Below, piece by piece: positions 41,501 to 43,365 of a DNA stretch of 64,000 nt. The notes under the pieces are model-generated. The model saw nothing but the letters and a program-made list of their open reading frames with translations. It did no database searches and was not told the origin of the DNA. The DNA comes from Bugula neritina. Taxonomy: Eukaryota; Bryozoa; Gymnolaemata; Cheilostomatida; Bugulidae. Position 1 is the first letter of the stretch; every line of letters begins with the position of its first letter. The stretch is from NCBI GenBank assembly GCA_964035545.1, contig OZ037772.1, positions 7,894,889-7,958,888 of the forward strand. Reading direction: 5' to 3'. The translations under genes and the position numbers were made by a program.

Positions 41501-43365
41501 CTGCATTGAGCTCTCTTTAGTGGTAAACTATACACCATTTTATATATATATATATATATATATATATATATATATATATATATATATATATATATATATA
41601 TATATATATATATATATATATATATATATATATATATATATATATATACGCTCTCATTTAATGCTCAGCAATGACATTAAATGATTGAGCACTCTCACCA
41701 TGGTCACAAACTCAAGCTGCTAGCATTTTGCAATGCTCGTGACTCCTAGGTGACCCCTAGAGTCACTTGAGCACTCTGGCTTGAGTTTACACACCTTTTA
41801 AATATGCTTTAGTAAAACTATAAGTTTTACTATTGCGAAGGTGTGGGCCATGGTACTCTGTTCTGTGCTGATGAGGGGACAAATCCCGAAACAGGTGCTG
41901 TCCACAGATTGTGATATTACACTCTCATTTAATGCTCAGCAATGACATTAAATGATTGAGCACTCTCACCATGGTCACAAACTCAAGCTGCTAGCATTTT
42001 GCAATGCTCGTGACTCCTAGGTGACCCCTAGAGTCACTTGAGCACTCTGGCTTGAGTTTACACACCTTTTAAATATGCTTTAGTAAAACTATAAGTTTTA
42101 CTATTGCGAAGGTGTGGGCCATGGTACTCTGTTCTGTGCTGATGAGGGGACAAATCCTGAAACAGGTGCTGTCCACAGATTGTGATATTACACTCTCATT
42201 TAATGCTCAGCAATGACATTAAATGATTGAGCACTCTCACCATGGTCACAAACTCAAGCTGCTAGCATTTTGCAATGCTCGTGACTCCTAGGTGACCCCT
42301 AGAGTCACTTGAGCACTCTGGCTTGAGTTTACACACCTTTTAAATATGCTTTAGTAAAACTATAAGTTTTACTATTGCGAAGGTGTGGGCCATGGTACTC
42401 TGTTCTGTGCTGATGAGGGGACAAATCCCGAAACAGGTGCTGTCCACAGATTGTGATATTACACTCTCATTTAATGCTCAGCAATGACATTAAATGATTG
42501 AGCACTCTCACCATGGTCACAAACTCAAGCTGCTAGCATTTTGCAATGCTCGTGACTCCTAGGTGACCCCTAGAGTCACTTGAGCACTCTGGCTTGAGTT
42601 TACACACCTTTTAAATATGCTTTAGTAAAACTATAAGTTTTACTATTGCGAAGGTGTGGGCCATGGTACTCTGTTCTGTGCTGATGAGGGGACAAATCCC
42701 GAAACAGCTGCTGTCCACAGATTGAGATATATATATATATATATATATATATATATATATATATATATAAATATATATTTAAATTTCCTAACTTCTTTGA
42801 AATACCTGACAAATTCTTCTTACTTTTTTATGGTTTCCAATGAGATCTTTTCTCCAATGTTGATGCTAATAAGCAAATGAACCTAAAGTAAATGATAAAA
42901 TATTTTGTCAAAATTGGTAAAAAAGGTGATCAACGTTAATGGCAATGCCTAATGCGTTAAACTATAATGGATCCCAGAAGTCTAAAGAAAACTCAAGAGC
43001 CTGAAATTATAATATGTTGTTGTTTTAATATCTTTTAAGCAGTGGATAAGAAGATCTAAAATATTGAGACGTGACTCACATGTTTTTCCCAAACTTATAT
43101 TTGCTACAGTTATAATTTTGCTGTCAAAGTTCTATTTAAAATCCTATGACAACGCGAAAAAGTTCTTTAAAAGGAATATTATATTATAAATAATATGTAT
43201 ACTACATGTTTTGCTAACTTATTATAATATCATAATATTTTAAACAATTTTATGAAAACTTAAATACAACATTGTTTTTACTACGAAAAAATTCCTAAAA
43301 AAAAACCTTGAATATGTATGTCCATTCCATTACAGACTTACACAGATATTGAATAACGACATCAT
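38582..43365 (-). CDS. NR8: NHL-repeat propeller protein, probable GPI anchor
   Basis: Exons: 43342-43365, 42824-42882, 40232-41178, 38582-38673; 1122 nt, 373 residues. Leader MMSLFNIC + [10 protein letters not shown]. The ectodomain (28-343) has the motifs [33 protein letters not shown] and AGACGNC. The last blade is degenerate: neither GHNDG nor ADYGNN is present ([16 protein letters not shown] instead). The final exon codes only 30 residues: a small Ser/Gly region (MSGG), a hydrophobic run [12 protein letters not shown] and NYTT. With no basic stop-transfer tail this looks like a GPI-attachment signal rather than a TM with tail. Introns hold a piggyBac-like element and the retrozyme array. 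Confidence 0.78.
39365..40056. mobile_element. piggyBac-like nonautonomous element with TTAA flanks
   Basis: Starts CCCTTTGGCGATCAA and ends TTGATCGCGTAAGGG, an imperfect inverted repeat, bordered on both sides by TTAA (39361-39364 and 40057-40060). A TTAA duplication with CCC...GGG ends is the piggyBac signature. About 690 bp with no transposase frame. Near the right end CATATATGGTCCATTGATC occurs twice. It lies in the last NR8 intron. Confidence 0.8.
41193..41290. repeat. (TA)n tract
   Basis: Pure TA run beside the NR8 ectodomain acceptor, with only a few bases between. Confidence 0.95.
41302..41484. mobile_element. Palindromic Penelope-type terminal fragment
   Basis: Arms of about 75-80 bp (41302-41375 and about 41403-41484) are inverted copies. 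Each has CTGAAGA, a hairpin, GAAAC and then TAATAAAGT, the same order as in the arms of the Penelope-like element at 21.0-22.5 kb (CTGAAGA...GAAA...TAATAAAGT) but a different sequence. It sits between two TA tracts. Probably the ends of a second Penelope family with the body lost. Confidence 0.55.
41541..41648. repeat. (TA)n tract left of the retrozyme array
   Basis: Pure TA run directly joined to the first array unit. Confidence 0.95.
41862..41908 (+). ncRNA. Type I hammerhead ribozyme, unit 1
   Basis: Stem I TCTGTG/CACAGA (6 bp); core CTGATGA; stem II from GGGGACAAATCCC; GAA; stem III ACAG-GTG-CTGT (4 bp); cleavage site C at 41902. All invariant core bases are present. A short stem III is usual for metazoan retrozyme and Penelope hammerheads, which may act as dimers. 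Confidence 0.88.
42133..42179 (+). ncRNA. Type I hammerhead ribozyme, unit 2
   Basis: As unit 1, except that the 3' side of stem II ends TCCT instead of TCCC, giving a G-U pair next to the core. The conserved core is intact. Confidence 0.85.
42404..42450 (+). ncRNA. Type I hammerhead ribozyme, unit 3
   Basis: Same as unit 1 in every stem and core base. Confidence 0.88.
42675..42721 (+). ncRNA. Type I hammerhead ribozyme, unit 4
   Basis: As unit 1, but the stem III loop is CTG rather than GTG (ACAG-CTG-CTGT). The fragment at 11.8 kb has the same loop and the same following bases (GATTGAGATATA), so this end unit is its closest relative. Confidence 0.87.
42727..42770. repeat. (TA)n tract right of the retrozyme array
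   Basis: TA run joined to the last unit without a spacer. Confidence 0.93.

What the first reader, a model, noticed from the sequence alone, without database searches (positions are those of the whole stretch)
41649..42726. Four-unit hammerhead retrozyme array in a receptor intron
Four exact 271-bp units each fold on paper into a complete type I hammerhead: 6-bp stem I, CTGATGA, stem II, GAA, 4-bp stem III and a cleavable C. Tandem self-cleaving noncoding units are the defining form of animal retrozymes, which spread through small circular RNAs. Self-cleavage of a plus-strand transcript would release 271-nt RNA. The units are nearly identical, so the array is young or being homogenised. I do not recognise this unit from known families, so the family may be undescribed.
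Basis: partly seen in the sequence, partly recalled or inferred. Interest (0 to 1): 0.9.

Follow-up and report, generated by a model that had tools for sequence, protein, structure and literature searches.

The report
Ribozyme retroelement inserted in TA repeats
A small mobile element with an RNA-cutting motif is scattered over the genome of a marine moss animal, mostly inside stretches of repeated TA letters, the same landing sites used by a larger reverse-transcriptase element that may move it.

Summary
Four near-identical 271-bp units (41648-42730) each carry a complete type I hammerhead; a strict descriptor finds exactly these four in the window and none in 100 shuffles. The genome is Bugula neritina. 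This is no local satellite: 563 ribozyme cores lie in the assembly, mostly single or partial units. By the features readable from DNA it is an animal retrozyme family, the first my searches show for Bryozoa. The stronger finding is how it inserts. Genome-wide, 439 3' ends run into (AT)n and 113 into another unit. The 3' end is fixed, 15 nt past the predicted cut in 36 of 46 inserts, while 5' ends are either one full lap or scattered truncations. That fits target-primed reverse transcription. An abundant Penelope-like element (reverse transcriptase, GIY-YIG-like region) uses the same sites (43 of 47 ends), so it is the best candidate for the enzyme that moves the retrozyme, which the papers I read leave unproven. 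Self-cleavage, circular RNA and use of that enzyme are inferred. The 'receptor intron' is unproven, and the neighbouring frames lie on the opposite strand.

The parts
41541..41648 (.). (TA)54 microsatellite, 5' flank of the insert (target)
41648..41918 (+). retrozyme unit 1 (5' end letters as in other copies)
41919..42189 (+). retrozyme unit 2
42190..42460 (+). retrozyme unit 3
42461..42730 (+). retrozyme unit 4 (3' end letters as in other copies)
41862..41908 (+). type I hammerhead 1, predicted cut after 41902
42133..42179 (+). type I hammerhead 2 (G-U at the innermost stem II pair), predicted cut after 42173
42404..42450 (+). type I hammerhead 3, predicted cut after 42444
42675..42721 (+). 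type I hammerhead 4, predicted cut after 42715
42716..42730 (+). 3' anchor CACAGATTGAGATAT, the usual end joined to (AT)n in other copies
42727..42778 (.). (AT)26 microsatellite, 3' flank of the insert (target)
21000..22473 (-). partial copy of the Penelope-like element with inverted terminal arms; (TA)n at both sides (20895-20999, 22474-22578)
21368..21952 (-). open frame for the C-terminal, GIY-YIG-like endonuclease region of that element
41297..41480 (.). palindromic pair of a second hammerhead-like terminal sequence between (TA)52 and (TA)54

Best explanation
The units are copies of a non-autonomous retrozyme of Bugula neritina. Proposed cycle: (1) a plus-strand transcript through a copy cuts itself at the hammerheads, and 271-nt RNAs are joined into circles (inferred). 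(2) A Penelope-like element protein nicks a (TA)n microsatellite, and the TA end primes reverse transcription at the AU-rich site usually 15 nt past the ribozyme cut (inferred from the fixed 3' end and from the shared target of the two elements). (3) Synthesis runs round the RNA. It often ends after one lap, where the copied ATAT can pair with the other side of the broken TA tract; it may stop early (truncated copies) or run on for further laps (tandem units) (pattern shown, cause inferred). (4) Some arrays, this one probably included, were changed afterwards by recombination or unequal exchange (inferred from their mosaic letters).
For: Complete ribozyme in each unit, 0 hits in 100 shuffles. 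563 cores within 3 mismatches genome-wide, reversed-pattern control 0. 439 3' ends in (AT)n against 113 unit-unit junctions. In the 46 inserts tabulated, (AT)4+ starts within 4 nt of the 3' end in 39 (window background 2.4%) and lies within 60 nt on both sides in 37 (window background 2.3%). 3' end 15 nt past the cut in 36 of 46 and 10 nt in 7. 5' ends: 19 of 46 within circle positions 262-271 or 1-4, 27 elsewhere. 0 of 46 inserts end or start at the cut, so a cut linear monomer is not the template. The 5' second-lap stretch of L041 and the laps of L048 carry the same private change as their 3' part. Penelope-like element: RVT_1; 45% identity to P0040 over a stretch that includes P0040's GIY-YIG match; 43 of 47 ends with a (TA)4+ run starting within 30 nt, in two alternative forms.
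Against: No RNA data, so neither transcription nor cleavage nor circles are shown. The ribozyme segment is not better preserved than a neighbouring segment: 200 of 563 against 256 of 470 exact. L040 joins units of two subfamilies, and the window array has different letters at its ends and inside, so these two are not one circle copied without change. Private changes present in only one of several laps also occur (L005, L015, L024). I saw no shared sequence between retrozyme and Penelope-like element beyond a short AGATATAT end (by eye; the blast of the unit against the Penelope loci found a separate retrozyme copy only). The hammerhead-competent fold is not the lowest-energy circle fold (3.7 kcal/mol above it in four copies from other loci, 7.5 for the window unit). 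8 of 46 inserts lack (AT)4+ within 60 nt of the 5' end. Other retroelement classes were not surveyed for the same target.
Confidence: 0.62

Rival explanations
1. Same element and same reverse-transcription insertion, but the template is an uncut linear read-through RNA with (UA)n on both sides of the unit. Circles play no part; tandem units come from unequal exchange.
For: Most 3' ends abut TA, so most copies are single or partial units between TA tracts; read-through RNA of such a copy would give the one-lap copies seen. The window array and L040 show mosaic letters. Ribozyme segment not specially preserved.
Against: Inserts that start 13-23 nt upstream of unit position 1 (L006, L025, L041) and inserts of 1.2-1.8 laps (L023, L024, L027, L048, L054) need a template longer than one unit. 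It leaves the intact ribozyme core in hundreds of copies without a role.
Confidence: 0.22
2. A retrozyme moved by another machinery, for example a LINE-type element, with the shared TA sites due only to a general preference of several elements for AT-rich nicks.
For: Several element ends lie in (TA)n here, including the second palindromic tail at 41297-41480. No sequence homology seen between retrozyme and the Penelope-like element.
Against: The Penelope-like element is abundant, has open frames over 700 aa, has hammerhead-like ends and the same target. LINEs were not surveyed, so this stays open.
Confidence: 0.2
3. A DNA transposon or satellite: a microsatellite-targeted non-autonomous DNA element (like plant SaTar MULEs) or spread by excised DNA circles.
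For: Microsatellite-targeted DNA elements exist (PMC5907723 abstract). The mosaic window array could come from recombination with a DNA circle.
Against: Fixed 3' end with scattered 5' truncations and multi-lap copies; no terminal inverted repeat seen by eye in the printed ends; ribozyme present.
Confidence: 0.05
4. A simple local satellite with a chance hammerhead.
For: Four tandem units at one place.
Against: 563 dispersed cores; 0 shuffle hits.
Confidence: 0.01

Closest known systems
Metazoan non-LTR retrozymes with type I hammerheads (coral, mussel, axolotl; PMC7229834: abstract, part 1 of 3 of Results, Discussion and passages read)
   Same: Unit size within 170-400 nt, G+C below 50%, type I hammerhead with a helix III, copies in tandem, strongly structured RNA, coexistence with Penelope-like elements.
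   Different: Here most copies are single or partial units, most lie in (TA)n, and the 3' end is fixed. The parts read report no microsatellite target. Circular RNA and cleavage were shown there, not here.
Penelope-like elements, Penelope/Poseidon type (PMC11167929: parts 1-2 of 4 read; PMC3846280: passages read)
   Same: Preference for AT-rich DNA; reverse transcription started past the ribozyme cut; an optional 'tail' giving two alternative ends; inverted terminal arms; hammerhead motif near the end.
   Different: The retrozyme codes for nothing. The Bugula element lies in (TA)n tracts, its tail is about 28 bp (30-40 bp in the paper), and its hammerhead-like motif lacks a normal stem III.
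Plant LTR retrozymes (PMC4918200: search listing and abstract start only; features as stated in the parts read of PMC7229834 and PMC7761336)
   Same: Non-autonomous, hammerhead-bearing, RNA spread.
   Different: Type III hammerheads, LTRs, primer-binding site and 4-bp target duplications; here type I hammerheads and no LTR-like layout seen.
SaTar microsatellite-targeted MULEs of plants (PMC5907723 abstract)
   Same: Non-autonomous elements associated with microsatellites.
   Different: DNA transposons; here retro-type ends and a ribozyme.

Membership tests
metazoan retrozyme | complete type I hammerhead in the unit | tested here: met
metazoan retrozyme | unit of about 170-400 nt, G+C below 50% | tested here: met
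   271 bp, G+C 42.4%
metazoan retrozyme | dispersed copies that include tandem ones | tested here: met
   563 cores; 113 unit-unit junctions
metazoan retrozyme | no protein, no LTR / PBS / PPT | tested here: inconclusive
   stop-to-stop frames of 55 aa or more overlap only the two ends of the array and run into the TA tracts; LTR, PBS and PPT were not searched for
metazoan retrozyme | target-site duplications when present | tested here: inconclusive
   hidden by TA on both sides in 37 of 46 inserts
metazoan retrozyme | self-cleavage in vitro | not testable with these tools
   -
metazoan retrozyme | circular and linear RNA in vivo | not testable with these tools
   -
Penelope-like element (proposed partner) | reverse transcriptase domain | tested here: met
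   RVT_1 E 1.6e-10 in L082
Penelope-like element (proposed partner) | C-terminal GIY-YIG endonuclease | tested here: inconclusive
   no Pfam GIY-YIG match for the Bugula proteins themselves, but the homologue P0040 matches PF01541 in the aligned part; fold prediction poor, pLDDT 50
Penelope-like element (proposed partner) | tail / no-tail alternative ends and inverted terminal arms | tested here: met
   24 no-tail and 23 tail ends of 47; inverted arms
Penelope-like element (proposed partner) | hammerhead motif in the terminal repeat | tested here: inconclusive
   CTGAAGA...GAAA with a stem II, no normal stem III

The most novel reading that the evidence does not exclude
An animal retrozyme behaves like a SINE of a Penelope-like element. 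Its RNA circle is reverse-transcribed directly on nicked (TA)n microsatellites by the Penelope-like protein, and integration closes after one lap because the copied ATAT pairs with the other side of the TA tract. This would name the mobilising enzyme of animal retrozymes and give a circular-template form of target-primed reverse transcription.
Probability: 0.45. Interest if true: 0.8.

Novelty: new member of a known kind. Interest (0 to 1): 0.6.

Why it matters
The parts of PMC7229834 and PMC7761336 read here name Penelope-like elements as likely but unproven movers of animal retrozymes. This genome offers a retrozyme and a Penelope-like family with the same unusual target, fixed 3' ends and hundreds of copies. 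The question can therefore be tested directly, from haplotype comparison, RNA reads and an in vitro insertion assay that already exists for a lizard Penelope-like element (PMC11167929). It also extends retrozymes to Bryozoa, for which a search found no paper.

Tried and rejected
Rfam search: no hammerhead at gathering score and only weak sub-threshold hits, so the family is not caught by the standard models.

Ribozyme conservation test by exact counts: 200 of 563 (ribozyme) against 256 of 470 (neighbouring segment). It gives no sign of extra constraint; a subfamily change at position 237 confounds it.

Single-circle origin of tandem copies: mixed result (L041, L048, L013 for; L040 and the window array against; one-lap changes in L005, L015, L024).

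Closeness of retrozyme and Penelope-like ends: 1 of 80 within 500 bp against 0.04 expected, 8 of 80 within 10 kb against 0.73. Small numbers, typed from the places printed for C1-C4 only (first 100 of 439 and of 417), so weak.

Other hammerhead families in the genome: one pattern that excludes this family's stem II start gave 3 matches, two of them variants of this family, with 2 in the reversed control. Other hammerhead shapes were not searched.

Relatives in viral and prokaryote contig collections: none for a 24-base piece. Fold of the endonuclease region: mean pLDDT 50, not used. Solved structures: none by sequence.

Dropped rows and bias: the table has 46 inserts. One distinct insert (L026) fell out because its all-TA flanks made its key equal to another's; one search shows TA on both sides. 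A second copy in L009, cut by the edge of the locus, was also left out. One 50-base match at 86% (L053, minus strand) is in the table and may be spurious. L031-L060 were chosen by an exact ribozyme core and L001-L030 by similarity to the window unit, so the sample is not random.

Full report
WHAT IS THERE. The window lies at G000:C8:7894889-7958888 of a 215.85-Mb assembly in 295 contigs. The lengths of C1-C9 agree with the nine chromosome lengths of Bugula neritina tzBugNeri2.1 in PMC11480708 (passages read): 35.64, 33.58, 32.42, 24.8, 17.72, 16.05, 15.81, 13.35 and 10.88 Mb. The paper gives 216.00 Mb in 320 scaffolds, so the held copy lacks a few small ones. The array is at 41648-42730, four units of 271 bp, between (TA)54 and (AT)26.

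RIBOZYME. Each unit has 6-bp stem I, CTGATGA, 4-bp stem II, GAA, 4-bp stem III with a 3-nt loop, and C before the predicted cut. A strict descriptor for type I hammerheads (rules recalled) finds only these four places on both strands of the window and 0 in 100 dinucleotide shuffles. Predicted cuts are after 41902, 42173, 42444 and 42715, so the array could release three full 271-nt RNAs. The circle of one window unit folds at -96.3 kcal/mol against -61.2 +- 4.4 for 200 shuffles (z -8.0). The hammerhead-competent fold lies 3.7 kcal/mol above the best fold in four copies from other loci (of five tried; the monomer of L040 had no intact core) and 7.5 in the window unit. Tertiary contacts are not in these energies. 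Among 64 ribozyme stretches in the inserts in hand, 42 are identical, but part of that sample was chosen by an exact core. One subfamily has a U to C change that turns a stem II G-U into G-C.

DISPERSAL. The 32-base ribozyme core occurs 563 times with up to 3 mismatches, 0 in the reversed control, and 200 times exactly. The 3' end followed by (AT)n occurs 439 times and the unit-unit junction 113 times, each with up to 3 mismatches; together 552, close to the 563 cores. Of the 113 junctions 100 are printed. Reading that list by eye I see no run longer than three consecutive junctions (four such places, the window included), so the window's four-unit array is among the longest.

ENDS. From I tabulated 46 inserts. 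(AT)4+ starts within 4 nt of the 3' end in 39 of 46 (2.4% of window positions pass that test) and lies within 60 nt on both sides in 37 of 46 (2.3% of window positions). Within 60 nt on one side the figures are 44 of 46 (3') and 38 of 46 (5'), against 11% of window positions. The 3' end matches the unit for 15 nt past the ribozyme cut in 36 of 46 and for 10 nt in 7; two others differ by a point change near the cut and one has no anchor. The 5' end lies at circle positions 262-271 or 1-4 in 19 of 46 and elsewhere in 27. The latter include three inserts that start 13-23 nt upstream of unit position 1 (L006, L025, L041) and many truncations. No insert starts or ends at the cut site (0 of 46). A fixed 3' end with ragged 5' ends fits target-primed reverse transcription. 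The excess at one full lap is explained if the copied ATAT pairs with the other side of the TA tract; that last step is inference. The 3' TA run could in part have been made by slippage during insertion rather than been there before; TA on both sides in 37 of 46 speaks for existing tracts.

AGE. The 3'-terminal units are 86-98.9% identical to the window unit, 22 of 46 at 98.1% or more, in a sample enriched for similar copies.

CIRCLE OR NOT. A cut linear monomer cannot be the template, because copies span the cut site. Either a circle or an uncut longer RNA can. For a circle: second-lap stretches share private changes with the first lap in L041 and L048, and the full units of L013 share a rare change. 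Against, or complicating: L040 joins units of two subfamilies. The window array has three private letters at its internal junctions (G248, T265, A3) but the letters of other copies at its outer ends, which suggests later exchange or recombination. Changes present in one lap only also occur (L005, L015, L024). I therefore do not claim circles as shown.

PARTNER. The window also holds a partial Penelope-like element (21000-22473, minus strand) with an endonuclease-like frame. A search with that frame gave 151 matches from 236 first-look candidates (150 scored), with open frames of up to 734 aa without a stop. One copy (L082, 679 aa in hand) matches RVT_1 and is 45% identical over 585 residues to P0040, whose C-terminal part matches GIY-YIG. 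A 97% identical 809-aa protein is in the protein collection (P0016). Of 47 ends of this element in the loci in hand, 43 have a (TA)4+ run starting within 30 nt: 23 of 24 without and 20 of 23 with a tail of about 28 bp. Genome-wide there are 417 ends within 3 mismatches, 126 of them of the no-tail form running into (AT)n; I did not count the tail form genome-wide. Two alternative ends separated by an optional tail, with reverse transcription started past the ribozyme site, are what was found in vitro for the lizard element PAc (PMC11167929, parts 1-2 of 4 read). That paper also found that ribozyme cleavage is not needed for insertion in vitro by PAc, which weighs against a need for cut RNA. A preference of Penelope elements for simple AT-rich targets is stated in PMC3846280 (passages). 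The case for partnership is the shared target, the shared layout and the abundance, not homology. LINEs were not surveyed as a control.

COMPARISON WITH THE LITERATURE. PMC7229834 (abstract, part 1 of 3 of Results, Discussion, passages) and PMC7761336 (passages) define animal retrozymes and propose Penelope-like elements as likely movers. The parts I read do not mention microsatellite targets. Searches: 'hammerhead ribozyme' with 'retrozyme' (31 papers, 25 listed); 'Penelope-like', 'microsatellite', 'hammerhead' (3); Penelope target terms (10; others listed); 'bryozoa' with 'hammerhead ribozyme' (0); 'retrozyme' with 'Penelope' since 2020 (9); 'bryozoan' with 'Penelope' (7); a six-term search (41, 12 listed). 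No listed title or abstract start described a retrozyme in TA microsatellites or in Bryozoa. Most of these papers I saw only in the listing. Most subscription journals and all bioRxiv preprints are outside the library.

CONTEXT. The array lies between two long minus-strand frames (40212-41291 and 45114-46052). Neither has a Pfam match, but they resemble two other frames of the window that match NHL repeats (resemblance by eye). Whether the array is intronic cannot be told without transcripts. A minus-strand gene transcript would carry the complement, not the ribozyme (descriptor hits on the plus strand only).

VERDICT. A real, genome-wide retrozyme family, new as far as the searches go. It belongs to a known kind, with an insertion pattern that links it to a Penelope-like element and makes an open question testable.

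Noticed in passing
window 41297-41480: Palindromic pair of another hammerhead-like terminal sequence (CTGAAGA...TGAAACTAGTAG on both strands) between (TA)52 and (TA)54; looks like the end of a second Penelope-like family in the same kind of site.
   Followed up: partly
window 5-62 kb: About 12 long frames of 312-370 aa on both strands that resemble each other (two match NHL repeats in Pfam), several followed by Thr-rich or membrane-spanning frames: probably a tandem family of receptor-like genes.
   Followed up: partly
window 2162-2475 and 48185-48565: Two nearly exact tandem duplications of 156 bp and 188 bp; the strict hammerhead descriptor finds nothing in them.
   Followed up: no
window 63312-63943: About 126 copies of the pentamer TACTC (90% matches).
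   Followed up: no
G000 genome-wide: Retrozyme subfamilies: junction GAGATATTACGC (spacing mostly 271) and GAGGTATTATGC (spacing 272 in some places); L040 joins units of both kinds.
   Followed up: partly
G000:C3:18516160-18516240: A retrozyme 3' end and a Penelope-like end face each other inside one short AT tract, about 10 nt apart between the two pattern matches.
   Followed up: partly
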